Below, piece after piece: positions 11,856 to 26,706 of a stretch of DNA of 64,000 bases. A program made the translations under genes and the position numbers. Within the stretch, counting starts at the first letter, position 1, and each line of letters begins with the position of its first letter. The stretch lies in NCBI RefSeq assembly GCF_946482605.1, contig NZ_CAMLSE010000009.1:1-64000 (forward strand), in the 5' to 3' direction. The DNA comes from an uncultured Dyadobacter sp. (GTDB taxonomy: Bacteria; Bacteroidota; Bacteroidia; Cytophagales; Spirosomataceae). Below the pieces are notes generated by a model. The model saw only the letters and a program-made list of their open reading frames with translations, was not told the origin of the DNA and made no database searches.

Positions 11856-11872
11856 ATTTTATATTATAAAAT
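11856..11872. promoter_or_regulatory. Predicted IclR operator, distal susC site
   Basis: The 17-mer ATTTTATATTATAAAAT is a perfect palindrome of 8+1+8. The identical 17-mer lies before the glycosidase operon at 25745, and a near copy sits at 12155. This copy is 299 bp upstream of the second susC site. Both susC-side copies are followed by TTACT. Two separated sites before one gene would allow looping. Assignment to the IclR protein encoded at 25921-26661 is an inference from the related palindrome over its own start. Confidence 0.6.
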
Positions 11873-12154
11873 TTACTCACGACAGGATGCTTACTCTCGT
11901 CGGCAAGCTCAGCTTCGTTCAATCACCTAAGGAAAGCCTCAACTCCGCTGACTAAACCCATTAGTTATAAGTTTGCTTATGGTTATTTATCCTTTTAACA
12001 CACTGTTAATCAACGCATCAAGATCCTATCTAGCTCATTTGATAAGTATCATTACCTATGAGTAGGCAATCGCAAATTAACTTCTATAAAAAAATGGACA
12101 AAAATTTGGATTGAACCAGTTTAAAGAAGTAGTATTGTAACTAAATAAAATTGA

Positions 12155-12171
12155 TTTTTATATTATAAAAT
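12155..12171. promoter_or_regulatory. Predicted IclR operator, proximal susC site
   Basis: TTTTTATATTATAAAAT matches the 17-mer at 11856 and 25745 except for the first base. Its inner 15 bases are a perfect palindrome. It ends 15 bp before the susC start codon at 12187, so bound protein would cover the ribosome-binding or transcription-start region. That position suggests repression. Confidence 0.6.
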
Positions 12172-12186
12172 TTACTATCCTACCTC

Positions 12187-15100
12187 ATGAAACTAAAGCG
12201 CTACAAATGGCTTCTAAGCTGCGTGGCAGTGATCGTTGCCACCTCTTTGGGATGGGCACAGCAAAGGGTAATCACAGGGACGGTAACCGGGTCAGCAGAC
12301 AAGGCATCCCTGCCCGGAACAACGATTACCGTAAAAGGAACTTCGACGGGTACTACCACCGATGCAGATGGAAAGTACCAGGTTACGCTACCCGATCAGA
12401 ATCCCGCCACGCTGGTCTTTTCATCCATTGGGTATGTAGGTCAGGAAATCGCTTTGAGCGGTCAATCCGTCGTGAATGTCGAACTGTCCGTTGACCAAAA
12501 GCAACTGGACGAAGTGGTAGTGGTCGGGTACGGGACCAAAGAACGACGTGATGTTATCAGCGCCATTTCGACAGTGAATGGCCGTCAGGTTCAAAACCTG
12601 CCGGTGGCTTCGCCGGTCGCTTTGCTGCAGGGACGCACACCTGGTGTTCAGATCGTTCAGAATACAGGCGCGCCCGGAGGCACGAATTTCAGTATCAGGA
12701 TACGCGGAACCACCTCGATCAATGCGGGAAATGACCCTCTTTACGTGGTTGACGGCTTACCTTTTCTAGGAAACTCCTCCGATATCAATCCTAATGATAT
12801 TGAATCCATGGAGATTCTGAAAGACGCGGCGGCATCTGCGATCTACGGCTCGCGGGCAGCCAATGGCGTGGTGCTGATCACCACCAAGAGAGGAAAATCA
12901 GGAAAGGCATCCATTTCTTTCAACTATTACAAAGCCGTTCAAAAAGTAGACAAGCAGCGCATGCCGAAACTGATGGATTCCCGCGAATTCATTGAAATGA
13001 TCCAGGAGCAGCGTGCAAACGGCGCCGGTGTGACCTCTTTGTATGGCTTCATACTTCCCCAAAATGGGATGATCGGTGGCAATGGTCAGATCTCGAACAC
13101 CAGCTGGCTGGACGAAATTGTGCAGACCGGCAGCATGGATAACTACCAGATGACCATTCAGGGAGGCGACAGTAAACTAAGGTTTTATCTGAGCGGGGCT
13201 TTGCTCAAACAAAAAGGCGTATTGATCAGCACAGACTATAAGCGCTATACGGCAAAACTGAACCTGGATTACCAGGCAACGACAAGACTTAAAATTGGTA
13301 CCAGTATCAATTTTACCAGAGGAGCACAAAACGGGTCCCCGGAGAACCAGGGCGGTATCTTGCAGGCTGCATTGTTCAAATCTCCCGTCAATCCTGTGTA
13401 TGCAGTAGACGGAACGTATTTTCTTGAAGATATATCGACGATCATCAATCCAGTTGCGGTCTCAAACCTTGAAACTCGTTACAATCTGCGGAATCGCCTT
13501 TTAACAAATGCCTTTGCAGAGTACAACATCCTCCCCGGTCTGACTTTCAAAACCTCCTGGGGCGCAGATCTGATCTCCGCCAAAAGCGATTACTTTCAGC
13601 CCAGCACCGCTCGCCGACTCACAGTCACCAATGGCTCCTCGGCCTATAATGACGCTACAAACTGGATCTATGAGCACACTTTGAATTATGTTAATTCTTT
13701 CGGAGCGCATCGCCTGAATGCATTGATTGGTTACAGCCAGCTAGAAAACAACAGTGGCGGCAACTCGGCGGCAGCCCGGGATTATGGGACTAACAATATT
13801 GAGACCCTTAATGCGGCATCGACGCCCACATCAGCAAGCTCTTCCAGAACAGCCGACGGCCTGGCCTCGCTGTTCGGAAGGGTTGGATACATCTACGCCA
13901 ACAAATACTACCTGGAAGCAAGCTTGCGCCGTGACGGCTCCTCCAAATTCGGGGCTAATAACCGGTATGCACTCTTTCCTGCGGCCTCGATAGGCTGGCA
14001 AGCTGGCAGGGAAGATTTTTTCAAAAGCATCTCAACGGTGGTCAATGACCTCAAATTCCGGGCAAGTTATGGTAGGACGGGTAATCAGGGAGGCATAGGC
14101 AACTATACCAGCCAGGGAGCCTATTCGACCGGCCAGGGCTATGCGGGATTGAATGGGGTGAGCCCGTCGGCGATCGCAAATCCTGACTTGAAATGGGAGA
14201 CGACGGATCAGTTCAACGCGGGGGCCGATATTTCGTTTTTGAAATCCAGGATTAATCTCAGCGCGGACATTTACCTAAAAAAGACGGGCAACCTGCTGCT
14301 GAATGTGGAGCTGCCCAACACATCAGGATTTAGCACCGCCCTTCAAAATGTAGGAAATACCGAAAACCGGGGGCTTGAATTAAGTATGAACACCGTGAAC
14401 TTCGAAGGTGAAGCGCTCAGATGGAGCTCCAACTTCAATATCAGCTTTAACAGAAACAAGATCACCAAGCTCTATAATGGCAATGACATTATCAACACAC
14501 GCGGTGGTGTCGGCTTCGGTGAAGCTCAGACGTTCGGGTTGCTCAGAGAAGGAGAGTCGATTGGCGCATTCTTTGGCTGGAAGACGAATGGCGTTTACGC
14601 GACCTCGGCAGAAAACGAGAAACAACTGAGGGCGGACAATGCCACCGGCTATGTTTTCAAGGGCGGGGACATGCGTTTCACCGACGTCAACAAGGACAAT
14701 ATCATCGACAATCTCGACCGAGTCGTCATCGGCAATGCATTGCCCAAATTTACCGGAGGGTTTACCAACAATCTTCAATACAAAAACTTCCAGCTGGACG
14801 TGCTTGCACAGTTTACTCAGGGAAATGATGTCTATAATGGCACGCGGACTGTCAGCGAAAGCATGTTCCAATTTGCGAACGGCGCCAAGATCCTGCGCAA
14901 CCGCTGGCGAAAAGAGGGAGACATTACCGATATCCCCCGCGCCGACCATACCGACCCGGCTGGCAATCACCGCAGCTCGACCAGGTGGCTGGAAGACGGC
15001 TCCTACCTGAGGATCAAGACTGTGACCTTATCCTATAATATCCCCGCTGGCATGCTTAAAAAGCTCGGTGTGACAAGTCTGAACATTTATGCAACAGCCC

Positions 15101-15246
15101 AAAACCTGTTCACCTTCACACACTACACGGGCATAGACCCTGAATCAAACTCCTACGGAAACAGCACGGTGACCGACCTGGGTTTCGACTACGCTGCCTA
15201 CCCACAATATAAAACATTTCTGTTCGGCGTAAATCTTGGTTTTTAG
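12187..15246 (+). CDS. susC: SusC-type TonB-dependent outer-membrane transporter
   Basis: This 1019-residue protein has a signal peptide ending near LGWAQQ. A carboxypeptidase-regulatory-like domain follows (VITGTVTGSADKASLPGTTI to SVDQKQ). The plug is introduced by DEVVVVGYGTKERRDVISAI, typical of the SusC/RagA class, with RIRGTTSINAGNDPLYVVDG inside it. The rest is a beta barrel ending with the aromatic terminus LFGVNLGF. It sits directly upstream of susD (22 bp gap) and would form the lid-and-barrel complex that imports glycan oligomers across the outer membrane. Two predicted IclR palindromes precede it. The cargo is inferred from the nearby glycosidases to be a mannose- or uronate-containing glycan, which remains unproven. 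Confidence 0.95.
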   Translation: MKLKRYKWLLSCVAVIVATSLGWAQQRVITGTVTGSADKASLPGTTITVKGTSTGTTTDADGKYQVTLPDQNPATLVFSSIGYVGQEIALSGQSVVNVELSVDQKQLDEVVVVGYGTKERRDVISAISTVNGRQVQNLPVASPVALLQGRTPGVQIVQNTGAPGGTNFSIRIRGTTSINAGNDPLYVVDGLPFLGNSSDINPNDIESMEILKDAAASAIYGSRAANGVVLITTKRGKSGKASISFNYYKAVQKVDKQRMPKLMDSREFIEMIQEQRANGAGVTSLYGFILPQNGMIGGNGQISNTSWLDEIVQTGSMDNYQMTIQGGDSKLRFYLSGALLKQKGVLISTDYKRYTAKLNLDYQATTRLKIGTSINFTRGAQNGSPENQGGILQAALFKSPVNPVYAVDGTYFLEDISTIINPVAVSNLETRYNLRNRLLTNAFAEYNILPGLTFKTSWGADLISAKSDYFQPSTARRLTVTNGSSAYNDATNWIYEHTLNYVNSFGAHRLNALIGYSQLENNSGGNSAAARDYGTNNIETLNAASTPTSASSSRTADGLASLFGRVGYIYANKYYLEASLRRDGSSKFGANNRYALFPAASIGWQAGREDFFKSISTVVNDLKFRASYGRTGNQGGIGNYTSQGAYSTGQGYAGLNGVSPSAIANPDLKWETTDQFNAGADISFLKSRINLSADIYLKKTGNLLLNVELPNTSGFSTALQNVGNTENRGLELSMNTVNFEGEALRWSSNFNISFNRNKITKLYNGNDIINTRGGVGFGEAQTFGLLREGESIGAFFGWKTNGVYATSAENEKQLRADNATGYVFKGGDMRFTDVNKDNIIDNLDRVVIGNALPKFTGGFTNNLQYKNFQLDVLAQFTQGNDVYNGTRTVSESMFQFANGAKILRNRWRKEGDITDIPRADHTDPAGNHRSSTRWLEDGSYLRIKTVTLSYNIPAGMLKKLGVTSLNIYATAQNLFTFTHYTGIDPESNSYGNSTVTDLGFDYAAYPQYKTFLFGVNLGF

Positions 15247-15268
15247 ACCAGAAATAAAATTCAAACTT

Positions 15269-16681
15269 ATGAAAAGTATTCACAAGAACCGGCTCATCTA
15301 CCTTTCTCTGCTCCTGACGCCCCTGCAAAGTTGCCGGGATGTAACTGTACAGCTAAGCCCGAGCAGCATCTCCGCCGCCAATTTTTACAAAAACGGGGCT
15401 GACGCGGACGTGGCCATCAACGGATGTTACGACGCATTCCAGAACTCGGAGCGTTATGTATTTTGGGGTGATGGCCGAAGCGACCTCTTCGCGGTCACCG
15501 ACCGTTCAACGCTTACCGAGCAGCAAATCACGAATGGAGACGTAAACGCCTCCAATGGATTGGTTAGCTGGAATGAGCAGTATGCAGCCATCAATCGAAC
15601 CAATAGTGTGCTCAAAAATGTGCCTGGAATTGCTGACCCCGGACTTGACAACAGAAGAGAGCGCATCCTGGGCGAAGCCTACTTCCTCAGAGCGATGGCC
15701 TATTTCTATTTAGCCAGGACATTCGACAACGTCCCCCTCATTCTCGAACCTTATGAAAGTCTCTCGCAAGACTTTTTCCCGAAACAGTCTACTCGCGATC
15801 AACTGTATACGCAGATCGAATCCGACCTGAAAGATGCCGAAAGCCGACTTTCTGACAAGCCGTTCAGTAGTGCCGTGGAATTGAAGGGCAAGGCGTCGCT
15901 TGGCTCGGTCAGGTCGGCGCTGGCAGATCTGTATTTATGGCAAAAAAAATACGAACTCGCTGCCGAAGCTGCGCTTAAAGTGATCAACAGCCCTGCGGGG
16001 TACTCCCTCGTCTCAGGGGCTAACTACGGTACGATATTCCTCAGCAAAAATACGTCTGAGTCGATCTGGGAAATTCAGTATAACAACACCTACCTGGAAG
16101 GCAACAACAACAATTTGGTCAACCGGTTTCTGCCACTGGGCGGCACGGGATATGGGGCCGGGAACTGGACGGTCAAGTATTCGGCCAAGCTGCTCGCGGC
16201 ATATTTGCTTGAAGATCTCAGGGGCCCGGTCACGGTAAAAAATACCGGCGCGGGTGCTCCCTGGCGGGATGCCAACACAGAATACATAGCCAAATACCAG
16301 GGGACGCTGGCCAATCAGAATGCGACACGCTTCTTTGATTCCAACCAGGTGATCTACCGGCTTGCTGATGTCATTCTGATGCGCGCCGAGGCGCTGAATG
16401 AGCTGGGAAAAACCGCCGATGCCATACCGCTGCTGAACCAGATCCGTACCCGTGCAGGGCTGGCTGCAACCAGCGCTGTATCCCAGGCCGAAGTTCGCCT
16501 GGCTATCGAGCAGGAGCGTTTTCTGGAACTTGCTTTCGAAGGCAAGCGGTATTTCGATCTTAAACGCACCGGCCGTTACGCTGCGGTAACCGGCCATACC
16601 GACCCCAACTGGCTCCGCTGGCCGATAACCGCCAACGAATTGATTAAGAATCAAAATCTGATCCAAAACCCTGGCTACTAA
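15269..16681 (+). CDS. susD: SusD/RagB-family outer-membrane lipoprotein
   Basis: The start at 15269 (MKSIHKNRLIYLSLLLTPLQSC) gives a lipoprotein signal with the acylated Cys in LQSCRD. An upstream in-frame start at 15236 would overlap susC and bury the signal, so it is rejected. The 470-residue protein shows the SusD pattern: an N-terminal segment with INGCYDAFQNSERY, tetratricopeptide-like helices around ILGEAYFLRAMAYFYLARTF, and the C-terminal block VIYRLADVILMRAEALNELG to FLELAFEGKRYFDLKRTGRY. It binds glycan at the cell surface and caps the SusC barrel encoded just upstream. Confidence 0.95.
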   Translation: MKSIHKNRLIYLSLLLTPLQSCRDVTVQLSPSSISAANFYKNGADADVAINGCYDAFQNSERYVFWGDGRSDLFAVTDRSTLTEQQITNGDVNASNGLVSWNEQYAAINRTNSVLKNVPGIADPGLDNRRERILGEAYFLRAMAYFYLARTFDNVPLILEPYESLSQDFFPKQSTRDQLYTQIESDLKDAESRLSDKPFSSAVELKGKASLGSVRSALADLYLWQKKYELAAEAALKVINSPAGYSLVSGANYGTIFLSKNTSESIWEIQYNNTYLEGNNNNLVNRFLPLGGTGYGAGNWTVKYSAKLLAAYLLEDLRGPVTVKNTGAGAPWRDANTEYIAKYQGTLANQNATRFFDSNQVIYRLADVILMRAEALNELGKTADAIPLLNQIRTRAGLAATSAVSQAEVRLAIEQERFLELAFEGKRYFDLKRTGRYAAVTGHTDPNWLRWPITANELIKNQNLIQNPGY

Positions 16682-16691: not shown

Positions 16692-17156
16692 ATGAAGACG
16701 CCATTAAATTGCTTTTCAATAATTGCATTAGTACTACTAATCACTGGCTGCAAAGAAGACGAAGTGTATAACGAACTGCCCAAAGCAGTTTACATTACCA
16801 ATAAAGCACCGGATGGCACGGCGAATATTACCAATTCGGCCACTGCCAGGAAAAATGTTGCAGCCGGCGCGGCGCGGGTTTACCTGAACCAGCCCAACGA
16901 AAAGGATGTGGTCGTTAATTTTACACTTTCCGGCACGGCGGTACAGGGACAAGATTACACGCCTCCGACAGCGCTGGCAGTAACAATCCCGGCCGGCAGC
17001 TATTCCGGCGACATTAATTTCTCGGTGCTCAACAATGCCGGTCAGACGACCAACAAAACGGTCATCATCCAGCTTACTTCCGCCTCGGAAGGATTCGGGA
17101 TCGGCATTGGCGTCTTGAAAGGATATGGCACATTTTCGTACACGATTACACCCTGA
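16692..17156 (+). CDS. Surface lipoprotein, Calx-beta-like domain, SusE/F position
   Basis: A 154-residue protein begins 10 bp after susD. It has a lipoprotein signal (MKTPLNCFSIIALVLLITGC, Cys20). The mature part is beta-rich and reads AARVYLNQPNEKDVVVNFTL, SGTAVQGQDYTPP, AVTIPAGSYSGDINFSVLNN, a pattern like Calx-beta or DUF1735/4843-type modules found after SusCD pairs. Such proteins add glycan-binding capacity on the cell surface. Only one module is present, so it is short for a SusE or SusF homologue. The ligand cannot be inferred. Confidence 0.8.
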   Translation: MKTPLNCFSIIALVLLITGCKEDEVYNELPKAVYITNKAPDGTANITNSATARKNVAAGAARVYLNQPNEKDVVVNFTLSGTAVQGQDYTPPTALAVTIPAGSYSGDINFSVLNNAGQTTNKTVIIQLTSASEGFGIGIGVLKGYGTFSYTITP

Positions 17157-17227
17157 ACTGGCGCTGTCCGGTCATATTCCGGTGCCGCTCGTCAGTAAAT
17201 ATCGATCACCTTCATTAAGTTCTCCCA

Positions 17228-17269
17228 GAAAGGGCTATCCTAAACCTCAAATGGATAGTCCTTTCCGTT
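17228..17269 (+). terminator. Terminator after the susCD operon
   Basis: GAAAGGGCTATCC at 17228-17240 pairs with GGATAGTCCTTTC at 17253-17265 (13 bp with one G-U pair) around a 12-base loop. It lies 70 bp downstream of the lipoprotein stop. The T-run is weak. Confidence 0.55.
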
Positions 17270-17360
17270 TGCCTGACCAAACCAAGACTCTACAACCACA
17301 AATCCAGTCACTTTGGTCAGAAATCAATCCGGGTGATACCGTTAATACACCCCTGATCAC

Positions 17361-17391
17361 AGAAAAGCCCCGTCAGCATTTGACGAGGCTT
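17361..17391 (-). terminator. Terminator of the minus-strand uronate operon
   Basis: On the minus strand AAGCCTCGTCA (17391-17381) pairs with TGACGGGGCTT (17375-17365) with one internal mismatch and a five-base loop. A run of T follows. It lies just past the stop of the RraA-like gene. Confidence 0.65.
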
Positions 17392-17418: not shown

Positions 17419-18162
17419 TCAGAAATAGCCGCCCTTCCCGGTAATATCCTGAATGGATTGTCCGTCTTTGACCCATCCAAATATTACTTTCTCGTTTTCG
17501 ATAATCTCTTCTGCCCGCAGTAGCACCTGGTACGCACGCTCTCTGGGCACGACGAGCACTCCATCGATATCACCAAGAATGACGTCACCAGGCTTGATAG
17601 TGGCATCACCAATCTGAATGGTCACCTGATAATGCGTAATCAGGCAGCGTCCAAGGCTTCCATTGGATATCCTGTATTTATAAAACACAGGGAAATCTGC
17701 CTCCAAAATCTGATGGGTATCGCGGATACCTCCGTCGATACAGGCCGCTTTTACTTTCTTTCCCTTGGCTGTGGCTGTCATTACGCCGCCCCAAAGCGTT
17801 GCCTTCGAATCGCTGGTCGTATCCCAGACTACGAACGAGTCTTCATGCATTTCGTCGAGCATCTGCACACGGAACTCCATTTCTCCCTTAATCATCGCAT
17901 TGGGGGCACTTTTAACGGTAAATGCAATTCCTGCAACCGTACGATACTCCCGAAGCGGGACGATATGGCCTGGCAGGGCTTGATTGAGCATGCAAAACTC
18001 CCGCATTACATCGTTGACCGCGCCGGTATACATCCGTTCGAAACGCTCGATAAGCTCCTTATCCGAAATCGGAAACGGTTCAACAGAGCGGCCCTCCCTA
18101 AGCTCGATGAGATTTTCCAGGTTCATCATACCTACTTCCTTCTGATATTGATCTACGCTCAT
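17419..18162 (-). CDS. RraA-family protein (HMG-aldolase/demethylmenaquinone methyltransferase-like)
   Basis: This 247-residue protein belongs to the RraA/4-hydroxy-4-methyl-2-oxoglutarate aldolase fold. The signature stretches are GVMTATAKGKKVKAACIDGG followed by IRDT, where the R-D pair is involved in metal and substrate binding, and VQIGD-type IQIGDATIKPGDVILGDIDGVLVVP near the C-terminus. Members cleave or decarboxylate branched oxo-acids using a divalent metal, while others only regulate RNase E. Its place as the last gene of a mannonate-dehydratase operon argues for a sugar-acid role, perhaps on a 2-keto-3-deoxy acid. That role is inference. Methionines at residues 12 and 13 are alternative starts. 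Confidence 0.85.
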   Translation of the reverse strand: MSVDQYQKEVGMMNLENLIELREGRSVEPFPISDKELIERFERMYTGAVNDVMREFCMLNQALPGHIVPLREYRTVAGIAFTVKSAPNAMIKGEMEFRVQMLDEMHEDSFVVWDTTSDSKATLWGGVMTATAKGKKVKAACIDGGIRDTHQILEADFPVFYKYRISNGSLGRCLITHYQVTIQIGDATIKPGDVILGDIDGVLVVPRERAYQVLLRAEEIIENEKVIFGWVKDGQSIQDITGKGGYF

Positions 18163-18231: not shown

Positions 18232-21069
18232 TTAAAGCGGCGATTGAACTGCGGCGGAATTCCATCCCTTGACAGTCAGGATCGGTTTGTCCCCATTTCC
18301 GGGTTCTCTCCACAAGACGTCCAGGACGATTTCGCGGGACTCCCCTGCGGCTAGCCAGAAATAGTTATCCGCTGCGACAAAGGCTCGCCTGGCACCGATG
18401 ATATCCAGCTTGGTCATAAAAGACGGCACTTTGCCATGGTTGGTAATTTTTACTTTAAGCTGGCTGTGGGCCTGATCTGTTTTTTGGTGCCCGGTGACAG
18501 ACAATGCGAGCTCTGCCTGCGGGGCATGGGACATGGCCGGTTTCAGCCAAGGTCCTTTTTCAAGGGTAATCCATGGTATCGGCGTTGTGGTGTAATCCTT
18601 GTAAAATGCTTCCTCATCCATTTTCGATAACACTCGTGGATAATAGCAGGACCGTGAAATGAGCCTGCCACCAGGGTCTTTCAGCTCTGCGAGAACCAGC
18701 AGAAAACGATCACGATAACCTGCCGGAATCGCAAATTTCCCCATATCCAGCCCTGTCACAGAAGTCCCAGCCGCCACCTGAGCAGTCTTTTGCCCTTGCC
18801 AGAGCACCTTGAAGGCATCATCCATCACCAGCACCGACAGTTTCCCACCATTCATAGCAACAGGTGTAGCGTGCGTGATTTTCACCGGAAGGTCGATCTG
18901 CTCGCCTGCCCTCCATAAAAGTCTGGGAATATCTACGGCCACATGCGTGGGCTCGTAAGTGCGTTTCAAAAAATAATAGGGTGCAGCGGCGTGTCCAAAC
19001 CAGTCCATCAGTTGGATGGCTACCACTGGCCAGTGCCTTTTGAAAACCCAGGGAATAAGACCGGCGGTTACCGGATAATTCCCTTGTACCTTCTCAGAGA
19101 AAACCTGATAAAATTCACCCGCCCCCACCTGCGAGGCTTCGGCGATATCCTCAATACTTGGATCAGTCACATCGACGATATGCGATGCTCGGCTCAACAT
19201 ACGCGGTACCCTGCTAGGCCCGTACTCGGTAAAATGGTGAATGAATTCGGGATGATCTTTTGCAAAATCCTTATCCCACATCTTACCCAGCTCCTTGAAT
19301 TCCTGATTGTCGACGGTTTCATAAAACACATTAGCCTCGGGAAGTGAGTGCACCCCAGTTTCGGAAATCCATGGCACCTTCGCATAGCTGTGGTTGTACC
19401 AAACCGGGTCCATGTCCGGGTACACGTGCACGGCACCATGATCCGGGGTGGTACGCTTGAAGGGGCGCGAGGGGTCAAATATTTTCAGATTGCGCTCGAC
19501 AATGCCGATAACGGCGGTATTACCAGTTGAATAGGGGTTGAATTCATTGCCTCCACACCATATCGCGAGCGAAGGATGATTGCGCAGCCGAAGAATATTC
19601 TGCACGACCTGGGCCTCCCATACGTCCTGTGGAAAGTCGGGGGAATCCTGATTGCCAACCGGAAAATCCTGCCATACCATCATCCCCAGCTCATCGCAGA
19701 TTTCATAGAATTGTTTTGTTTCCAACAATCCCCCTCCCCAGATGCGGATCATCTGCACTCCCATTTTATGGGCAGCTTGCAGCGTCCACCGGTATCGTTC
19801 GGGAGACAAGTCCAGCAAAATATCCTGCGGGGTGAAATTCATTCCCTTCACAAATACCTTCCTGCCATTGATGACAAACTGCCAGTTATCCCAGCGGTCT
19901 CTTGTTCGGGGCCCGGCGGTAGGCACAAAATCGATCTTGCGGATCCCGTGCTTGAAGCCAATCAGATCGACCTGTTTGCCAGCGTCTAAAAGCGCTATTT
20001 TGACATCATAACTTTCGGCCTTACCCAGCCCATTGAGATTCCAAAGTCTGGGATTTGGGACGATAATGTCTTTTTCCAGCCAGTTACGGCCCTTGGTCAG
20101 GTCCACTTTCCAGCTTTTTTTAATAAAGCTTTTACCATCGAGCGAAAGCTCAATCTGAACAGCATAATCGCCCGAAACCGGCTCAAACTTTTGTCCAAAA
20201 TTGTCAGGATGGTCCATCTGGGTATTTTTCCAGGGATGCAGCGTCAGATTCGTTGAAGATTCTCCGGCCAGCAATTCCAGCGAAAGGTGCAGATCAGCCT
20301 GTTTTTCCGACACGGTGGAGGTGGTCAAAAATGGCCGCTCCAAATGCACTTTCGGCACCACTTCCAGCCTAACACCCTGCCACATTCCCACGCTGAAAAA
20401 AGCCTCCCCTCCCAGCCCACCGGAGATTACCCAGGGTTTGATAATCTTACCGGTGTTACGCGGGTCAAAACCTTTGCGGACGGGTGCTTCGCCTGGCTTG
20501 CTGGCCTTATTACCCCAGTTACCCGCCTTTACCTCCACAACGATTTCGTTGTCTGTTTTCAAAAACCGGCTGATTTCCACAGTTGGCCCGCCAAACATCC
20601 CTTCGTGCACGCCTACAAGGGAATCGTTGACCCATACCTTTGAAAAATAGTCCAATCCTTCAAAACAAAGAAATGCATATTGGCCGTCGGTACTTTGCGG
20701 CATTTGAAACGATTTGCGGTAGTACCAGACTTTTTCATCCATCCAGGCATACTGCTCCGAATTTTTATGATAATACGGATGTGGAAGTTTTCCGGCCTTA
20801 TAGTAAGACCATTGCACCGAGTTGGGCACGCTTGTTTGAAATTCGTCCCGGATGCCCTTTAACTCGGAAAGTGCTCCAACAGGCTTGTCCGTATACCCCA
20901 GTCGCCAGCCATCTCCGGAAAGCTCGACGTGCTGGCTTCCCGCACGCTCGGTGACCCGGTAAGGTTGCCACAATGATTTTTCGGAGGACTGGCTCCGGGC
21001 CGTTTCTGAAAAGGTGAATGTCAAAACGGTCATTAGTATAAAGACCCTCGCATGCAGAAGTACTTTCAT
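18232..21069 (-). CDS. GH2-family exo-glycosidase, beta-mannosidase-like, secreted
   Basis: This 945-residue protein begins with a signal peptide (MKVLLHARVFILMTVLTFTFSETARS). The N-terminal jelly-roll sugar-binding domain contains EKVWYYRKSFQMP and WVNDSLVGVHEGMFGG. The catalytic barrel has MIRIWGGGLLETKQFYEICD, then LAIWCGGNEFN, whose Asn-Glu pair is the GH2 acid/base, and WISETGVHSLP with the likely nucleophile Glu. The overall style matches beta-mannosidase and exo-glucosaminidase branches rather than LacZ. It would act in the periplasm on oligosaccharides brought in by SusCD. The gene lies between the SDR and the RraA-like gene in one minus-strand operon. Confidence 0.88.
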   Translation of the reverse strand: MKVLLHARVFILMTVLTFTFSETARSQSSEKSLWQPYRVTERAGSQHVELSGDGWRLGYTDKPVGALSELKGIRDEFQTSVPNSVQWSYYKAGKLPHPYYHKNSEQYAWMDEKVWYYRKSFQMPQSTDGQYAFLCFEGLDYFSKVWVNDSLVGVHEGMFGGPTVEISRFLKTDNEIVVEVKAGNWGNKASKPGEAPVRKGFDPRNTGKIIKPWVISGGLGGEAFFSVGMWQGVRLEVVPKVHLERPFLTTSTVSEKQADLHLSLELLAGESSTNLTLHPWKNTQMDHPDNFGQKFEPVSGDYAVQIELSLDGKSFIKKSWKVDLTKGRNWLEKDIIVPNPRLWNLNGLGKAESYDVKIALLDAGKQVDLIGFKHGIRKIDFVPTAGPRTRDRWDNWQFVINGRKVFVKGMNFTPQDILLDLSPERYRWTLQAAHKMGVQMIRIWGGGLLETKQFYEICDELGMMVWQDFPVGNQDSPDFPQDVWEAQVVQNILRLRNHPSLAIWCGGNEFNPYSTGNTAVIGIVERNLKIFDPSRPFKRTTPDHGAVHVYPDMDPVWYNHSYAKVPWISETGVHSLPEANVFYETVDNQEFKELGKMWDKDFAKDHPEFIHHFTEYGPSRVPRMLSRASHIVDVTDPSIEDIAEASQVGAGEFYQVFSEKVQGNYPVTAGLIPWVFKRHWPVVAIQLMDWFGHAAAPYYFLKRTYEPTHVAVDIPRLLWRAGEQIDLPVKITHATPVAMNGGKLSVLVMDDAFKVLWQGQKTAQVAAGTSVTGLDMGKFAIPAGYRDRFLLVLAELKDPGGRLISRSCYYPRVLSKMDEEAFYKDYTTTPIPWITLEKGPWLKPAMSHAPQAELALSVTGHQKTDQAHSQLKVKITNHGKVPSFMTKLDIIGARRAFVAADNYFWLAAGESREIVLDVLWREPGNGDKPILTVKGWNSAAVQSPL

Positions 21070-21117: not shown

Positions 21118-21909
21118 TCAGGTCCCGTAAGGTTTGGGTTTTCCATAGCCTCTCATCAACAGAAGACCTCCGTCAATGGTGATCGATTCCCCGGTGAGAT
21201 AACTTCCGCTGGCCAAAAGACCCACAATGACCGCGGCAATCTCCTCGGGCAAACCAAAGCGTTTCATGGCGATACCTTCGGTAACTTCCCGGAAAGAGTC
21301 CAGATTTTCGCGGGCATCCCTGGTCATATCCGTTTCGATCGCGCCGGCGGCGATGGTATTCACTTTAATGTTGTGAGGAGCCAGCTCCAGGGCGACACCT
21401 TTCATCAGCGTTTCCAGAGCGCTTTTGGAAGCACCATATGCACTCTGCCCAATGCCGGGGCGTATGCCGTTCACAGACGTAATGGAATAGATAGCGCCTT
21501 CTACACCGCTGTCGACCATCATTCTGGCGACTGCCTGCGTGAGAAAAAAAGTCCCTTTGAAATTCATATTGGTAAACAAATCCAGATCGTCTTCGGTGGT
21601 ATCCAGAAAAAGCTTTTTGTACGACACCCCTGCGTTATTGACCAGAAAATCAATGCCCCCCATCGTTTCCCACACAACTTTTGCCAACGCCTTGGCCTGC
21701 TCAGGGTCGGCCAGATCCGCACGGAACACATACGCCCTGCCCTGCCGCAACCGGATCTGCTCAGCCAATTCGTCCGCCTCCGCGGGCTGATCGTAGTAGT
21801 GAATACCCACTTCACATTGATCACCGGCGAGCGCCAGTGCGATGGCCCGTCCTATCCCACGCGACGCCCCGGTCACCAGCGCCCTTTTACCCGATAATGA
21901 TGGTTTCAT
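21118..21909 (-). CDS. SDR oxidoreductase, candidate D-mannonate oxidoreductase
   Basis: This is a classical short-chain dehydrogenase of about 263 residues. It has the cofactor motif VTGASRGIGRAIA, the NNAG motif (LVNNAGVS), and the catalytic Ser and Tyr-x3-Lys in SITSVNGIRPGIGQSAYGASK. The C-terminal GESITIDGG block is usual for sugar or 3-oxoacyl reductases. The start at MKPSLSGKR was preferred over codons six to nine bases upstream. In Bacillus the fructuronate-to-mannonate step is performed by an SDR. With mannonate dehydratase and a sugar-acid-type transporter as neighbours, that is the most economical role here. The family itself does not prove the substrate. Confidence 0.85.
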   Translation of the reverse strand: MKPSLSGKRALVTGASRGIGRAIALALAGDQCEVGIHYYDQPAEADELAEQIRLRQGRAYVFRADLADPEQAKALAKVVWETMGGIDFLVNNAGVSYKKLFLDTTEDDLDLFTNMNFKGTFFLTQAVARMMVDSGVEGAIYSITSVNGIRPGIGQSAYGASKSALETLMKGVALELAPHNIKVNTIAAGAIETDMTRDARENLDSFREVTEGIAMKRFGLPEEIAAVIVGLLASGSYLTGESITIDGGLLLMRGYGKPKPYGT

Positions 21910-21941
21910 AAGCATCAAGCTGTTAGGATGATCTTCCTGAT

Positions 21942-23162
21942 CTACTGAAATTGAACCTGATCTCTTTTAAAAAATAGCAGCGCGCCCACAATGATGAAAG
22001 CGCCGCCCAATATATAAGCAACCGAAAGCAGTGACAACCCCAGCGACAAGCCCAGCGTGGGTTTGAGCGCCCCAAGCAAATACGGAGAAAATGCGCCGGC
22101 CAAAAAAGCACACATCAACATCAGCCCCGAAGCAGAAGAGCGCAAACCGGCAGGTACGACCTCATAAAGAGACGCAAAAATATTAGAATCGTATGCCCCG
22201 CGAAAAAGGCCGAAAATGAATAGGGCGAGATAAGTGACGGGCTCTGAGCCAGCCGCTGCCATCCAGAATATAAATGGTGCCGCCAAGAGCAATGAAATAC
22301 CTTGCAGCATTAAGCGTGCCTTTCTGTCTGAAAGGGATAACCGGTCGGCCAGCTTCCCTCCTGCCAATACGCCTATCACCGCCCCGCCATGGTGATAGAA
22401 CATGGAGTTGAATCCTGCCGCAGAAAGCGACAAGCTGAATTTGGCTGCAATAAAGGACGGCATCCATGTCAAATAGCCCACGTTCACGAAAACCATGCAG
22501 GCAAAACCAAGCGTAAGCAGCAGCACAGTGGGCTTACGGAAAATGACACCGGCGGTTTTAAGTATGTCCGGTTTCTCCTGAACAGGCACGGGAATGTCAT
22601 TTCTTAATTGCATAAAAACGAGCATGCCGACGATAATGCCAAAAGCCCCGAATAAATAAAATGCCTTCTGCCATCCGTAGGTTTCACCGATATATCCGGC
22701 GATCAGCCCGCTGAGTATGATTCCAAGGTAATTCGCCGACTGATGTACCGATAGGGCAAACGAGCGGGTTTCCTGGTGATGCTCACTGATGAGCGCATTG
22801 GCCGATGGGGCGTAAAACGCCTCGCCGCCGCCTGTCGCAATGCCTCTGAGCAAAATGAATTGAAGCAGCGTCGTGCAGAGTCCTGTCGAAAGGGTGGCAA
22901 TACTCCAGAAAATCAGGCTGAACCCAATAATTTTCTTCCGCGAAAAACGGTCGCCCCAAAAACCGGCCACAGGCACCATGATCCCGTAGGTCCATACCAA
23001 TACGGATGCGATGAGTCCAAGTTGCTCGTCGCTAAGACCCAGATCCTGCCGGATCAGGGGAAGCACGATGCTGAAAATCTGGCGATCTGCCTGATTCAGA
23101 AAAAAGGCCAGCCAGAGCAAGGCAAGCAACTGCCATTTGTAACCCGCATTTCGCTTTGTCAT
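21942..23162 (-). CDS. MFS transporter (hexuronate/anion:cation symporter-like)
   Basis: This 406-residue membrane protein has about twelve hydrophobic segments and the MFS loop motif GDRFSRKK between helices 2 and 3. FFLNQADRQIFSIVLPLIRQD near the N-terminus is typical of the ACS (ExuT/GudP) branch that takes up hexuronates and aldonates. Its start overlaps the mannonate dehydratase stop by four bases (ATGA), so the two are translationally coupled. It probably brings the acidic monosaccharide released in the periplasm across the inner membrane. Confidence 0.88.
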   Translation of the reverse strand: MTKRNAGYKWQLLALLWLAFFLNQADRQIFSIVLPLIRQDLGLSDEQLGLIASVLVWTYGIMVPVAGFWGDRFSRKKIIGFSLIFWSIATLSTGLCTTLLQFILLRGIATGGGEAFYAPSANALISEHHQETRSFALSVHQSANYLGIILSGLIAGYIGETYGWQKAFYLFGAFGIIVGMLVFMQLRNDIPVPVQEKPDILKTAGVIFRKPTVLLLTLGFACMVFVNVGYLTWMPSFIAAKFSLSLSAAGFNSMFYHHGGAVIGVLAGGKLADRLSLSDRKARLMLQGISLLLAAPFIFWMAAAGSEPVTYLALFIFGLFRGAYDSNIFASLYEVVPAGLRSSASGLMLMCAFLAGAFSPYLLGALKPTLGLSLGLSLLSVAYILGGAFIIVGALLFFKRDQVQFQ

Positions 23163-24127
23163 ATCGTGCTGATATTTAAGGCATCCATCAGGCCCTTGAT
23201 ATAGCCTATGCCGAACAGATTACCTTTCACCCCGTACCCTGCGTGCTCATTTGCCTCTCCGGACATCGTCGGGACGTGATCAGACCGAAGCGGCACATCG
23301 ATCCCCAGATCCCGGTAAGCACGAAAAACCGAGGCCATATCCGTTGGTCCATTGTCGTGAAAAGTCTCCCGGAAATCGGTTGGCACACCTGAAACATCCC
23401 TGACATGCACAAAATGAATGCGGTCCTTCCACTGCTGCGCCAGCGAAATCAGATCCTTTCCCATGGTAGCATAAGTTCCCTGGCAAAATGTAATGCCATG
23501 CGCTGGGCTATTCGACAAGTTGAGCGCTTTTCGGGTAGCGTCCGCAGTAATGAAAATCCTTCCGATACCCTGCAATACCGGTACGGGCGGATCGTCGGGA
23601 TGCATAGCCATTTTTACCCCCGCCTTTTCAGCCACGGGCAATACCTTTTCAAGAAAATAGGCATAATTATCCCAAATCCTTTCTGCTGAAACCTCCCCGT
23701 ACCGCGTCAAAGGAAGCTTTGCTGCCGCCTCTGAACTAAATCCTGTTACCAGCGCGCCTCCACGTTCGGCAATGTTCGTGGCCGTGCGGAACCAGCCGGT
23801 GGCCATAAAATTGTAGCAAAGCAGGTTGATGCCCAGCTCACCCATATTTTCGAGCATGGCCATGTAGCTGTCCAGGTCCTCGTCGCGGCCGTCAATACCT
23901 AATTTGATGCGGGTCATATCGAATTGATCGCCCTCAAAGCCGATGAGTCTGAAACCACTTTTCTCAAAAGTTTCTTTCGACTTTTTCAGAGATGCCTTAT
24001 CCCATGGCGGCAAATCGCCCGTTAGTTCTGGTGCAAGCTTGGCAATGGCATGGTCGATTCCCATTTGCCTGGCCAGCGCCCATTTTTCGTCAGGCTTATT
24101 TCCAAAAAAAAGAAAAGATAGTTTCAT
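23159..24127 (-). CDS. uxuA: Mannonate dehydratase
   Basis: This 322-residue TIM-barrel enzyme matches UxuA-type mannonate dehydratases. Landmarks are ELTGDLPPWD, GINLLCYNFMATGWFRT, MAMHPDDPPVP, FCQGTYATMG, IHFVHVRDVSG and PLRSDHVPTM, which include the metal-binding His, Cys, His and Asp positions of the family. It converts D-mannonate to 2-keto-3-deoxy-D-gluconate in glucuronate catabolism. It lies downstream of a glycosidase gene and overlaps the MFS gene. No uronate isomerase or KDG kinase is present in the window, so those steps must be encoded elsewhere or bypassed. Confidence 0.92.
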   Translation of the reverse strand: MKLSFLFFGNKPDEKWALARQMGIDHAIAKLAPELTGDLPPWDKASLKKSKETFEKSGFRLIGFEGDQFDMTRIKLGIDGRDEDLDSYMAMLENMGELGINLLCYNFMATGWFRTATNIAERGGALVTGFSSEAAAKLPLTRYGEVSAERIWDNYAYFLEKVLPVAEKAGVKMAMHPDDPPVPVLQGIGRIFITADATRKALNLSNSPAHGITFCQGTYATMGKDLISLAQQWKDRIHFVHVRDVSGVPTDFRETFHDNGPTDMASVFRAYRDLGIDVPLRSDHVPTMSGEANEHAGYGVKGNLFGIGYIKGLMDALNISTI

Positions 24128-24193: not shown

Positions 24194-25672
24194 TTACGGA
24201 TCGACGAGCAGCTTCACAACACAGGATCGTTTGAAGTCCGGCAACCGGATCTTGCCGTCTTTGCCTGCCAAAATTTCGGAAGTGTTCTTCCATGGATCAT
24301 ACAAGCTTGCCTGCCGAGTTTTGATCTTGAATGGCAGTTGGAAAGAAAGTCCAGAAAGGACATTAGGCTTCAAATTCCTGGTCAGCTCACTCTCCCACGT
24401 GTTCGACTTATCTCGACACCAAAGCAGTACTGTTCTCTGCCCTTTCAAACCATATATGGTCAGTGCGCTTTCTTCCAGCACGAAAGGTTTGAAGTTCTCC
24501 GATCTTGGATCGATGCCCTGTATTGCTGTATTGAATCGGGCTAAATGATACCACAGATCATGCTTGTCGATATAGAAGTCCCAATGCCAGCTTTGCCCGG
24601 GCCCGGCCGCACCCGCGAAGAACGGGGCAAACAGGTAGTCGTGAAGCAGCATACCCACCGAATCCTTCCCGTAAAGTTTGGATGGGCCGGCATGATGAGG
24701 CTCCACCGCCCCGACTTCGGAAAGCAATATGGGCTTTGCCTGGGTATATCCTGTAAGCGAGGTGACCGCGTCGTAGGCCAGCTGGTCCATCGGCCCCCTG
24801 GCGACGTCCAGCTTTGCGCCTGGATCAAGATAGCGATGCACCTGCGCTACCTGGTTGCCCTGCATGACCGAGTAATTGCGGTATAAGTCCCGCGAAGCTT
24901 CCGAATCAAAACTTCCAAGACTTTGCATGACCAATTGATTCTGGACCAGCGTTTTGACCTCTCCGAGCATTTTTTGCGTCCATTGAGCCAAAACGTCTTT
25001 GTCAACCTGGACCGCATTAACCTCATTCCAAAGTTCCCATCCAAAAACGACGGTGTCGGCCGCGTAGCGTTTGGCCAGAAATTCAACGCGCCTCAAATAC
25101 AAATCGCGACCTTGAGAACTGGTGAAAAAGTCGCTAACACTTGCCAGGCCGGTGCCCTGCGACTGATCGTAGACTGGTTTATCAAAAGGCACCGAGCCTG
25201 CAAACAATGGTGGCAGGTTGGTAAGCTTTCGGAAATTTTCCAGGCAAAACTTAATGCGGACCCCATTTCTTCTGGCCATCTCAACGACCTTATCAATGCG
25301 CTGCGCCAGCTTTTCGTCGTATTCTCCTGCCTTAACATGCTCGACCTCAAAAGCAGGTGCACTTAGCCAGATACGGGTAAAATTGCCTCCGTTCTGTCCG
25401 AGCTTTGTCAGGTAATGTTCCATTTTGGCAAGCACCGAATCTTCCTGTGAGACAAAGCGCGGCCAGCAGATATTGACGCCAACGGGCACGAATAATTTTC
25501 CGTTTTTCAGCTCGAAATAACGAGGATCCGAGCCGCTTATCTCGACGAAAGCGGCGGCTGTATCTGCTACCAATGCTCTATCCGGCTGCCCTATGTGCCT
25601 AGGCATCGCCATAACGTCGCTGAAAATCATTAATGCGGTGTACAATGAAATCATCATCTTTAATTTGTTCAT
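24194..25672 (-). CDS. Secreted clan GH-A glycosidase (GH5-like cellulase-family fold)
   Basis: This 492-residue protein has an N-terminal signal segment (MNKLKMMISLYTALMIFSDVMA). The barrel begins with FELKNGKLFVPVGVNICWPRF. The acid/base lies in VVFGWELWNEVNAVQ, the Asn-Glu at the end of strand 4. The nucleophile is the Glu in AKPILLSEVGAVEPHH. These are clan GH-A hallmarks shared by GH5 and related families, but the exact family cannot be set by eye. A C-terminal beta module follows from about residue 420. It is the first gene of the operon under the 25745 palindrome and probably attacks the main chain or side groups of the imported glycan in the periplasm. Confidence 0.82.
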   Translation of the reverse strand: MNKLKMMISLYTALMIFSDVMAMPRHIGQPDRALVADTAAAFVEISGSDPRYFELKNGKLFVPVGVNICWPRFVSQEDSVLAKMEHYLTKLGQNGGNFTRIWLSAPAFEVEHVKAGEYDEKLAQRIDKVVEMARRNGVRIKFCLENFRKLTNLPPLFAGSVPFDKPVYDQSQGTGLASVSDFFTSSQGRDLYLRRVEFLAKRYAADTVVFGWELWNEVNAVQVDKDVLAQWTQKMLGEVKTLVQNQLVMQSLGSFDSEASRDLYRNYSVMQGNQVAQVHRYLDPGAKLDVARGPMDQLAYDAVTSLTGYTQAKPILLSEVGAVEPHHAGPSKLYGKDSVGMLLHDYLFAPFFAGAAGPGQSWHWDFYIDKHDLWYHLARFNTAIQGIDPRSENFKPFVLEESALTIYGLKGQRTVLLWCRDKSNTWESELTRNLKPNVLSGLSFQLPFKIKTRQASLYDPWKNTSEILAGKDGKIRLPDFKRSCVVKLLVDP

Positions 25673-25744
25673 CCTAAAGGGAATTCAAAGTGCGGGTTCT
25701 TCATCCTGACTATCTGCTGAATATTGTGGTGACTTTTTGATTTA

Positions 25745-25761
25745 ATTTTATATTATAAAAT
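25745..25761. promoter_or_regulatory. Predicted IclR operator of the glycosidase-uxuA operon
   Basis: ATTTTATATTATAAAAT is a perfect 17-bp palindrome, identical to the site at 11856 and extendable by one further pair on each side. It lies 73 bp upstream of the glycosidase start and 160 bp beyond the stop of iclR. Confidence 0.65.
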
Positions 25762-25870
25762 TTATTTTTACCTTATGACAATATTGGTACATGTTCTGAT
25801 TTTATCCAAATCCTTCACCATTTTTTTACAGCTTTTTGCAAAAAATATCCAATCAGCGTTCTGGTAAACA

Positions 25871-25903
25871 AAAAACGGGAAAGCTGACTGCCTTCCCGTT
25901 TTG
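25871..25903 (-). terminator. Terminator of iclR
   Basis: AAAACGGGAA at 25872-25881 pairs exactly with TTCCCGTTTT at 25893-25902. It lies 17 bp past the iclR stop on the minus strand, with A/T-rich flanks on both sides. It should insulate iclR from the glycosidase operon. Confidence 0.7.
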
Positions 25904-25920
25904 CAAAAAAATGATGCGTC

Positions 25921-26661
25921 CTAATGTTTGAGCTTCTGCGTTATTTTTTGCGCAGTTGTTTTCAACAGATTGATGAGCGTCAGCTTGTCGATAGCCATAA
26001 ACCGGTATTCGGGCAGATAGATGCTCAGGCTCGCGACGATTCGTTCATTTTTATAAACAGGTACGGCCAACCCGACCACCTGCCTGCCAGGAAGCACCTG
26101 AAATGCACAATGCTCCCTTCTTATCTGTGCAGTGACCGCTCTAAGCCCTTCGTCGGTACTTGCCTCTACCCACATTTCCGGTGACGGCATCCCGTATTTG
26201 CTAATAAACCGCTCTATTTCAGCATCTGAAAACATCGCGAATAACAATCGTCCCGACGCCGAATCGTAGATGTGTTTCTCGTCTGCTGTTCGAACTTGCA
26301 GCTCCTGTTCGGCACTTACTCTATGGATCGCGATCCGCTTGTCACCATTGAGAACAGCCAGCAAGCTATTTTCATTGGTTGCATTTGTTAGCTTTTCCAT
26401 TTCGGGCGCAGCGGCTTCAATCAAATCCTTGCGGTATGCATCATTTCCCGAAAGCGTATAAGAACGACTCCCGAGGATATAACCTTTCTTAGTCCCCACC
26501 TGCTCGATGTACTTTCTGGCAACAAGCGTCTTCATGATGTTTGCGCATGTTCCATGATTTAACGCCAGGGAATTTGCAATTTCACCTAAAGATTTAGGTC
26601 TTTCCGGTTCAGCAGCAACGATTTCCAGAATATCGAGCGCACGATTCACGACTTGTATCAT
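25921..26661 (-). CDS. IclR-family transcriptional regulator
   Basis: This 246-residue protein has the IclR layout. The N-terminal winged helix-turn-helix covers RALDILEIVAAEPERPKSLG, EIANSLALNHGTCANIMKTL and ARKYIEQVGTKKGYILG. The effector domain follows, with ENSLLAVLNGDKRIAIHRVS, YDSASGRLLFAMFSD and VVGLAVPVYKNERIVASLSI. IclR proteins bind sugar-derived or aromatic acids and short palindromes, and often control their own gene. Here the start codon lies inside a 51-bp perfect palindrome. Related 17-bp palindromes mark the adjacent uronate operon and susC, so it is the likely local repressor or activator. Confidence 0.92.
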   Translation of the reverse strand: MIQVVNRALDILEIVAAEPERPKSLGEIANSLALNHGTCANIMKTLVARKYIEQVGTKKGYILGSRSYTLSGNDAYRKDLIEAAAPEMEKLTNATNENSLLAVLNGDKRIAIHRVSAEQELQVRTADEKHIYDSASGRLLFAMFSDAEIERFISKYGMPSPEMWVEASTDEGLRAVTAQIRREHCAFQVLPGRQVVGLAVPVYKNERIVASLSIYLPEYRFMAIDKLTLINLLKTTAQKITQKLKH

Positions 26662-26706
26662 ACTATGTCATTATTTTACATTGTAAAATAATGACATAGT
26701 ATGATA
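26656..26706. promoter_or_regulatory. 51-bp perfect palindrome over the iclR start codon
   Basis: Positions 26656-26680 are the exact reverse complement of 26682-26706 around a single central T at 26681. The core is ATTTTACATTGTAAAAT, which differs from the three other sites only by a symmetric change (C and G instead of T and A). The iclR ATG (26661-26659) lies inside the left arm, so the mirrored arm carries an ATG at 26701 on the plus strand that opens only 23 codons. The DNA could extrude a cruciform, and the iclR mRNA cannot contain both arms unless transcription starts beyond 26706. Confidence 0.8.

What the first reader, a model, noticed from the sequence alone, without database searches (positions are those of the whole stretch)
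11856..26706. A four-site palindrome set defines a local IclR regulon joining susCD to a mannonate operon
Exact 17-mers ATTTTATATTATAAAAT occur at 11856 and 25745, a one-base variant at 12155, and a symmetric C/G variant at 26673-26689 inside the iclR start region. They fall only before susC, before the glycosidase-uxuA operon and over iclR. The symmetric substitution keeps the dyad, which is what a protein site rather than chance would show.
Basis: partly seen in the sequence, partly recalled or inferred. Interest (0 to 1): 0.72.

Follow-up and report, generated by a model that had tools for sequence, protein, structure and literature searches.

The report
IclR repressor sites in sugar-polymer locus
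Four copies of one short palindrome mark the switch by which a single regulator protein very probably controls its own gene and a neighbouring set of genes for eating a plant sugar polymer, and the same switch is found in related bacteria even where the genes have been shuffled or swapped.

Summary
The four sites exist as described and are not chance: a matrix built only from relatives' sites scores them 26-29, next best in the window 10.9, random maximum 16.8. In Spirosomaceae relatives, 30 of 30 iclR orthologue loci carry the site 22-30 nt before iclR and 28 of 30 an exact 15-mer core within 400 nt after it, usually before susCD. It accompanies iclR in other gene orders and in Parabacteroides, Ulvibacterium and some Chitinophagaceae. 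Of 20 paralogue upstream regions none has a site with at most one mismatch. Genome-wide it is rare and concentrated at this locus. Additions: operon sites have a conserved third half-site and mostly follow a conserved Bacteroidota-type promoter; the substrate is probably beta-mannan; the window's susCD differs from most relatives' but carries a homologous promoter-operator; the iclR site sits in a perfect 51-bp palindrome not seen in 30 relatives. Weak or missing sites in a few divergent homologues are reported. Binding was not tested, and the window's own genome is not held.

The parts
11856..11872 (+). Upstream (auxiliary?) operator ATTTTATATTATAAAAT, 299 bp upstream of the susC operator; no promoter recognised beside it, third box poor (4 of 7)
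   Evidence: (among the best matches shown, only 12082-12182 of this intergenic stretch matches fetched loci); third box and absence of promoter read by eye
12105..12137 (+). Predicted susC promoter: TTTG 12105-12108, 21-nt spacer, TAGTATTG 12130-12137
   Evidence: 6 of 7; consensus TTTG/TAnnTTTG from a passage of PMC7366714
12145..12151 (+). Third half-site ATAAAAT of the susC operator (7 of 7 to RYAAAAW)
12155..12171 (+). susC operator TTTTTATATTATAAAAT
12187..15246 (+). susC (SusC/RagA TonB-linked outer membrane protein), called type B here
   Evidence: TIGR04056 912.4 bits, cut-off 368.25
15236..16681 (+). susD (true start probably downstream of the TTG; inferred)
   Evidence: PF07980, PF14322
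16692..17156 (+). small lipoprotein-like gene, weak match to BT_3987-like N-terminal domain
   Evidence: below curated cut-off
17419..18162 (-). RraA-like aldolase, last gene of the minus operon
18232..21069 (-). GH2 exo-glycosidase, nearest solved relatives beta-mannosidases
21118..21918 (-). SDR dehydrogenase (substrate unknown)
21942..23162 (-). MFS transporter, best NCBIfam match a D-galactonate transporter family, below its cut-off
23159..24127 (-). UxuA-like mannonate dehydratase
24194..25672 (-). GH5, nearest named solved relatives endo-mannanases; first gene of the minus operon
25745..25761 (-). GH5-operon operator ATTTTATAATATAAAAT (minus strand)
25765..25771 (-). Third half-site GTAAAAA (7 of 7 to RYAAAAW) of the GH5-operon operator
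25779..25810 (-). Predicted GH5-operon promoter: TTTG (25810-25807), 20-nt spacer, CAATATTG (25786-25779), 5 of 7
25921..26661 (-). iclR regulator gene, 246 aa
26656..26706 (.). Perfect 51-bp inverted repeat around the iclR operator, including the start codon
26673..26689 (-). iclR operator ATTTTACAATGTAAAAT (minus strand), overlapping the predicted -7 box
26684..26715 (-). Weak predicted iclR promoter: TTTG (26715-26712), 20-nt spacer, TTATTTTA (26691-26684), 5 of 7

Best explanation
The palindromes are operators of the IclR-family protein encoded at 25921-26661. A dimer reads ATTTTRY-AWT-RYAAAAT through its HTH. At iclR it sits on the predicted -7 box and start region (autocontrol). At the GH5-uxuA-MFS-SDR-GH2-rraA operon and at susCD it sits just after a TTTG-N20/21-(TAnnATTG-like) promoter, over and past the expected transcription start, with a third half-site 3 nt upstream that would let a further subunit bind. 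Most likely it represses all three units until a breakdown product of the polymer (KDG, mannonate or a mannose-derived sugar) releases it. Conserved association, position and rarity are shown; binding, repression and effector are inferred. The distal copy at 11856 is either an auxiliary operator or a duplicate without function. The regulated locus is most probably a beta-mannan-type PUL in which mannose is oxidised to mannonate, dehydrated to KDG and split; this is inferred from family matches only. The perfect 51-bp repeat is probably a replication template-switch product seeded by the operator dyad, with the coding-side arm as template (inferred, because ATGATNCARGT at the gene start is conserved in relatives).
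For: Window: four sites, next best far below. Relatives: iclR site in 30 of 30 loci at -22 to -30 (29 exact to the 15-mer TTTTRYAWTRYAAAA; L041 with one mismatch in the 15-mer, three in the 17-mer pattern), exact 15-mer within 400 nt after iclR in 28 of 30, not in L013 and L042; in L013's genome the operon site lies further on, directly before susC (L073). Other gene orders keep sites: divergent iclR/susC in G193 (both 1 mismatch), MFS-iclR plus a distant susC in G155, and in G076 a site after iclR before a catabolic run plus two sites about 20 kb away upstream of SusC-like fragments. Distant: Parabacteroides L010 0 mismatches at -24, L012 two 1-mismatch sites; Ulvibacterium L006 0-mismatch sites before MFS-iclR and before susC; 5 of 16 Chitinophagaceae loci with sites of at most 1 mismatch within about 200 nt of an end of iclR. 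Genome-wide concentration. Negative control: 20 paralogue upstream regions, none with at most 1 mismatch, one with 2; residues 36-37 of the HTH are HG in 31 of 31 (30 relatives and window) against QA in 20 of 20 paralogues. Third box RYAAAAW at spacer 3: 23 of 30 perfect and 2 of 30 with 6 of 7, background 0.6% perfect; none of 31 iclR sites reaches 6 at that spacer. Promoter at least 6 of 7: 22 of 30 operon sites, 12 of 31 iclR sites. Motif geometry equals the published IclR-family type WTTYCRYW3RYGRAAW and three-box sites (PMC8222616, sections 13-15).
Against: No binding or expression data. The motif of the Spirosomaceae set lacks the C/G pair of the published IclR consensus. Promoter calls are consensus matches; in the window the iclR and GH5 promoters score 5 of 7. 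More divergent orthologues are weaker: 2 mismatches to the 17-mer at iclR in G174, G160 and G126; no site of at most 2 mismatches before the nearest susC match in G139; no PUL gene matched beside iclR in G174; G221's divergent susC has a 2-mismatch site. In Chitinophagaceae 9 of 16 loci have no site of at most 2 mismatches in the stretch held, among them L163 at 50% identity, and the site-bearing L160-L162 have S, A or N instead of H at HTH position 36, so that residue is not required. L003-L005, L008, L009 and L011 have none of at most 2 mismatches in the up to 400 nt before iclR. Off-locus background is real: paralogue-only genomes hold 34 pattern hits against 35 control hits (three of the 34 are in G155, two of these at its IclR locus). 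The 11856 copy has no recognised promoter or conserved surroundings. Substrate assignment rests on distant matches; relatives also carry GH10, and an enolase-type dehydratase closer to glucarate/galactonate dehydratases than to ManD.
Confidence: 0.9

Rival explanations
1. IclR binds these sites but works as an activator or dual regulator, not mainly as a repressor.
For: IclR-family proteins of both kinds are known (recalled). The conserved third box could serve an alternative binding mode.
Against: In the window three of the four operators lie on the predicted -7 box or downstream of the predicted start, the usual place for repression; only the extra copy at 11856 is upstream of a predicted promoter.
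Confidence: 0.15
2. The sites belong to another regulator, and iclR merely lies among the targets.
For: Co-occurrence alone cannot name the protein; some site-bearing IclR homologues differ in the recognition helix (L160-L162).
Against: The site tracks this iclR group through at least four gene orders and several orders of Bacteroidota, is missing before the paralogue, sits before iclR itself, and has IclR-family geometry.
Confidence: 0.06
3. Chance A+T-rich palindromes or terminators.
For: The motif is nearly all A and T.
Against:: rarity, near-exact conservation and position.
Confidence: 0.01
4. The 51-bp repeat is a functional element of its own (RNA hairpin or extended operator controlling iclR translation).
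For: Folds strongly as single-stranded DNA (-22 kcal/mol, z -8.73) and covers the start codon.
Against: None of 30 relatives' iclR sites has a perfect arm of 9 or more; the predicted start of transcription would leave only one arm in the mRNA (inferred).
Confidence: 0.12

Closest known systems
IclR-family operators of group 1, subgroup WTT-11-AAW, and three-box sites (Suvorova and Gelfand 2021, PMC8222616; abstract, sections 13-15 and search passages seen, supplements not seen)
   Same: 17 bp, odd, centre RY-W3-RY, A/T ends; third box in alternating direction; sites close before the gene start (centres here about -14 to -22 at iclR; -22 is the commonest position there)
   Different: C and G of the consensus are T and A in the Spirosomaceae set (one Parabacteroides site in L012 has the C); Bacteroidetes/Chlorobi make up 0 to 1.56% of their motif classes, 0.65% of WTT-11-AAW; sugar genes are said to be under-represented in WTT-11-AAW regulons
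KdgR (IclR family) of gamma-proteobacteria
   Same: Best NCBIfam match of the window protein (NF011671); pectin and oligogalacturonate utilisation per Table 1 of PMC8222616 (passage)
   Different: 82.7 bits against a cut-off of 275, so not KdgR by that test; motif differs (RWWGAAACGNCGTTTCAKKA in the same table)
Polysaccharide utilisation loci of Bacteroidota
   Same: SusCD pair plus glycosidases, transporter and catabolic genes
   Different: Control by an IclR protein; commonly described PUL regulators are HTCS, ECF/anti-sigma, AraC, LacI (recalled; HTCS and LacI also named in a passage of PMC12125979)

Membership tests
IclR-family transcription factor | HTH_IclR and IclR_C domains above gathering score | tested here: met
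   PF09339 33.0 (cut-off 22), PF01614 60.6 (cut-off 24)
KdgR equivalog | NF011671 score at or above 275 | tested here: not met
   82.7 bits
IclR-family operator, WTT-11-AAW | 17-bp odd palindrome with RY-W3-RY centre and WTTY ends | tested here: met
IclR-family operator, WTT-11-AAW | C at position 5 and G at position 13 | tested here: not met
   T and A in 31 of 31 iclR rows and 30 of 30 operon rows; the L012 site at -69 has the C
IclR-family three-box site | Third half-site in alternating direction next to the palindrome | tested here: met
   23 of 30 operon sites perfect, incl. both window operon sites; 0 of 31 iclR sites. The spacing was chosen after viewing the alignment
Autoregulated local regulon | Site conserved before regulator and targets, rare elsewhere | tested here: met
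   on relatives; not testable in the window's own genome
Polysaccharide utilisation locus | Adjacent susC and susD with carbohydrate-active enzymes | tested here: met
UxuA mannonate dehydratase | NCBIfam cut-offs | tested here: inconclusive
   subfamily NF003027 met (216.9 vs 191), equivalog TIGR00695 not met (166.2 vs 199.55)
GH2 beta-mannosidase | Nearest characterised relatives and WQDF / NE motifs | tested here: inconclusive
   activity not testable here
Repressor released by KDG or a related sugar acid | Ligand binding and derepression | not testable with these tools
   needs protein and expression assays

The most novel reading that the evidence does not exclude
The IclR gene with its promoter-operator module is a portable control cassette: it stays constant while the outer-membrane pair it controls is exchanged. 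In the window a susCD of another type (SusC 35-38% to that of 20 relatives, 70% to that of G193, whose IclR is only 53%) carries a promoter-operator 75-80% identical over 88-102 bp to those before the relatives' different susC (best matches), while a second copy now drives GH5 where susC used to be (inferred). Two operator classes, two-box at iclR and three-box at the operons, would set different repression strengths, and the operator dyad seeded a 51-bp palindrome by template switching.
Probability: 0.5. Interest if true: 0.62.

Novelty: new member of a known kind. Interest (0 to 1): 0.5.

Why it matters
It gives a testable operator, regulator and target set for an IclR-controlled polysaccharide locus in Bacteroidota, a phylum with few IclR motifs in the one family-wide survey seen (PMC8222616, Table 2), and it suggests a promoter-operator unit retained across exchange of the SusCD pair. 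That bears on how newly acquired transporters come under existing control.

Tried and rejected
Considered and rejected: chance or terminator origin; extended symmetry as a general trait of iclR operators (flank symmetry over 31 rows is not consistently above expectation; only the window is perfect). A first third-box test with spacers 1-2 gave nothing because the spacing was wrong; it was repeated with spacers 2, 3 and 4, where spacer 3 stands out; I chose to look there after viewing the alignment. Attempts to find more orthologues in Flavobacteriaceae and in the order of Parabacteroides gave only the starting genome (1 of 397 and 1 of 393 at E 1e-50; genomes drawn evenly from larger groups). 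A plasmid search with 26600-26760 found no match. No structure prediction was run. Literature searches: no listed title or abstract describes this regulon or motif; two gave no paper at all. Of the listed papers I saw passages of PMC12125979, PMC12243196 and PMC7366714 and sections 13-15 plus passages of PMC8222616, nothing of the rest beyond the listing; the supplementary motif tables of PMC8222616 were not seen and could hold a related motif, so novelty of the motif is not proven.

Choices that affect counts. One search had 31 upstream rows (30 relatives, window) and 32 downstream rows (30 relatives, 2 window sites); rows with more than 1 mismatch in the 15-mer (L013 and L042, downstream) are left out of the downstream column counts, and, leaving 30. 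One search covers 20 of the 35 orthologue genomes, plus L001/L002, which are the genomes of L082/L083, 35 adds 9 more of the 35 and G155; G137, G140, G182, G184, G189 and G203 were not viewed with large flanks. The place list breaks off in G185, so places were seen for 22 of 33 genomes with a hit; of the 8 two-site genomes listed, 7 have both sites at the iclR locus, G051 one. One search shows the best 14 of 56 and of 79 matches, some of them the same place fetched twice. The relatives are related to each other and are not independent.
Full report
WHAT WAS CHECKED. The pattern ATTTTAYATTRTAAAAT with up to two mismatches occurs in the 64-kb window only at 11856, 12155, 25745 and 26673; 100 shuffles give 0.07 hits on average. 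The sequence around the sites agrees with the finding. Eleven nt separate the 26673 site from the iclR start codon; it is the centre of a perfect 51-bp inverted repeat, 26656-26706, by far the longest perfect repeat with a spacer of at most 8 nt in the window (next 14-bp arms).

GENES. On the plus strand susC, susD and a small lipoprotein-like gene. On the minus strand GH5, UxuA-like mannonate dehydratase, MFS transporter, SDR dehydrogenase, GH2 and an RraA-like aldolase; upstream of it iclR. The GH2's nearest solved relatives are beta-mannosidases, and it holds the WQDF and NE motifs; the GH5's nearest named ones are endo-mannanases, after a 'DUF5060 domain-containing protein'. Ten further proteins from three relatives' loci (L074, L082, L089) include GH10, laminin-G-like, an SMP-30/gluconolactonase-like and an enolase-superfamily protein. 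Beta-mannan with oxidative mannose catabolism is the reading I favour; it is inferred, and the GH10 genes and the dehydratase matches leave room for another substrate.

HOST. No genome is held for the window. The nearest named IclR relatives are Dyadobacter (72%), then Runella, Spirosoma, Larkinella, Fibrisoma; two unnamed ones reach 85%. The window is probably from Spirosomaceae (inferred).

CONSERVATION. A scan of the collection of 84,980 species genomes gave 12 loci. A family search centred on Fibrisoma montanum gave 56 of 222 genomes with a homologue at E 1e-30. In the 30 best loci the site precedes iclR at -22 to -30 in 30 of 30 (29 exact to TTTTRYAWTRYAAAA, L041 with one mismatch), and an exact 15-mer lies within 400 nt after iclR in 28 of 30, not in L013 and L042; for L013 the site is further on, before susC (L073). 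In the 20 loci with larger flanks the first matched gene after iclR is susC, then susD, then mostly GH5, SDR, GH2, MFS (genes without a window counterpart were not sought there). Other arrangements: divergent iclR and susC with a 1-mismatch site at each in G193; MFS-iclR with sites before MFS and a site before a distant susC in G155 (the latter 2 mismatches to the 17-mer, exact in the 15-mer); in G076 a site after iclR and two sites about 20 kb away upstream of SusC-like fragments. Weak or missing: iclR sites with two mismatches in G174, G160 and G126; 2-mismatch sites at the divergent susC of G160 and G221; no site of at most two mismatches before the nearest susC match in G139; no PUL gene matched beside iclR in G174.

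DISTANT RELATIVES. Parabacteroides L010 has an exact site at -24, L012 two 1-mismatch sites, L007 a 2-mismatch site at -36; L003-L006, L008, L009 (only 132 nt available) and L011 have none of at most 2 mismatches in the 400 nt before iclR. In Ulvibacterium marinum (L006) exact sites are before the MFS-iclR pair and before susC, beside SDR, RraA, UxuA, GH2 and GH5 matches. Of 16 Chitinophagaceae loci, 5 (L160, L161, L162, L171, L172) have sites of at most 1 mismatch within about 200 nt of an end of iclR; L166 has one 1.5 kb away, L164 a 2-mismatch site, and 9 have none, including L163 at 50% identity. Beyond these, 396 further Flavobacteriaceae and 392 further genomes of the order of L010 gave no homologue at E 1e-50, so outside Spirosomaceae and Chitinophagaceae the gene looks sporadic.

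GENOME-WIDE. With ATTTTRYATTATAAAA and one mismatch, Fibrisoma montanum has only the two locus sites; F. limi has its two locus sites and two others, one of which lies inside a long reading frame. Over 35 orthologue genomes TTTTRYAWTRYAAAA occurs 103 times against 44 for the reversed pattern; 14 of 35 genomes have exactly two, two have none. Over 20 genomes with only a 39-45% homologue the counts are 34 and 35; two of the 34 are at the IclR locus of G155. Ulvibacterium has 3 sites, two at the locus.

CONTROLS. Of 20 paralogue loci (41-46% identity), none has a site of at most 1 mismatch in the 400 nt before the gene; one has 2 mismatches. The Spirosomaceae set has H36-G37 at the HTH in 31 of 31, the paralogues Q36-A37 in 20 of 20; but the site-bearing Chitinophagaceae L160-L162 have S, A or N at 36, and L007 has H-S. 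That these residues contact DNA is inferred. A matrix from 58 relatives' sites, window excluded, scores the four window sites 26.2-28.8; the next is 10.9; the best of 30 second-order Markov 64-kb sequences is 16.75.

ANATOMY. Operon sites are invariant TTTTATAWTATAAAA, 30 of 30 fully symmetric; iclR sites vary and 3 of 31 are fully symmetric. The operon sites have a third half-site RYAAAAW 3 nt upstream: 23 of 30 perfect, against 0.6% background; both window operon sites are perfect; no iclR site reaches 6 of 7 there. The Bacteroidota promoter consensus, TTTG near -33 and TAnnTTTG at -7, is quoted from a passage of PMC7366714, which adds that the -33 motif was not seen in Flavobacterium johnsoniae. 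With TTG required and spacers of 18-22, 6 of 7 or better is reached by 22 of 30 operon sites, the -7 box mostly 26-28 nt before the 15-mer, and by 12 of 31 iclR sites, mostly with the -7 box overlapping the operator. In the window susC reaches 6, GH5 5 and iclR 5 of 7.

SWAPPED SUSCD. The window's SusC is 35-38% identical to the SusC after iclR in the 20 relatives, but 70% to that of G193, where IclR is only 53%. Yet the susC promoter-operator, within window 12082-12182, is 75-80% identical over 88-102 bp to those of relatives, and 25735-25792 before GH5 matches them at 84-89% over 44-55 bp (best matches). So one promoter-operator module appears to have been kept or copied while the susCD pair was replaced.

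EXTRA COPY. 11856 shares an identical 21-mer with the susC operator, but its surroundings are not among the matches shown and no promoter was recognised. Looping between the two, 299 bp apart, is possible; a functionless duplicate is as likely.

COMPARISON. The geometry is that of IclR-family motif subgroup WTT-11-AAW and of three-box sites (PMC8222616), without the C/G pair in the Spirosomaceae set. The protein is an IclR-family member but scores far below the KdgR equivalog cut-off. Literature searches listed no paper whose title or abstract describes this regulon; supplements were not seen. Quasipalindrome template switching is an established mutation type (starts of abstracts in the listing); applying it to the 51-bp repeat is my inference.

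VERDICT. It is a new member of a known kind.

Noticed in passing
26656-26706: Perfect 51-bp inverted repeat covering the iclR start codon and operator, without counterpart at the iclR sites of 30 relatives; template-switch product or assembly artefact
   Followed up: partly
17419-18162: RraA-like protein matches PDB 5ir2 at E 5.6e-118, an entry whose molecule is named 'Cellulase', an odd label
   Followed up: no
24194-25672: GH5 best solved match is 9gmj/9gpc, named only 'DUF5060 domain-containing protein'
   Followed up: no
17125-17523 and 17419-18162: Convergent overlapping reading frames at the junction of the two operons; the plus-strand one has no Pfam match and may not be a gene
   Followed up: no
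5831-11182: 1783-aa subtilase with a Por secretion tail, divergent from susC across a 1-kb intergenic stretch that holds the 11856 site
   Followed up: no
57550-57581, 48992-49021, 32088-32113, 45619-45640: Other strong short inverted repeats, possibly terminators
   Followed up: no
L006:11018-11054, L010:9813-9849, L012:9746-9782: Tandem operator-like sites 20 nt apart in distant relatives, within the 18-22 nt reported for tandem IclR-family sites
   Followed up: partly
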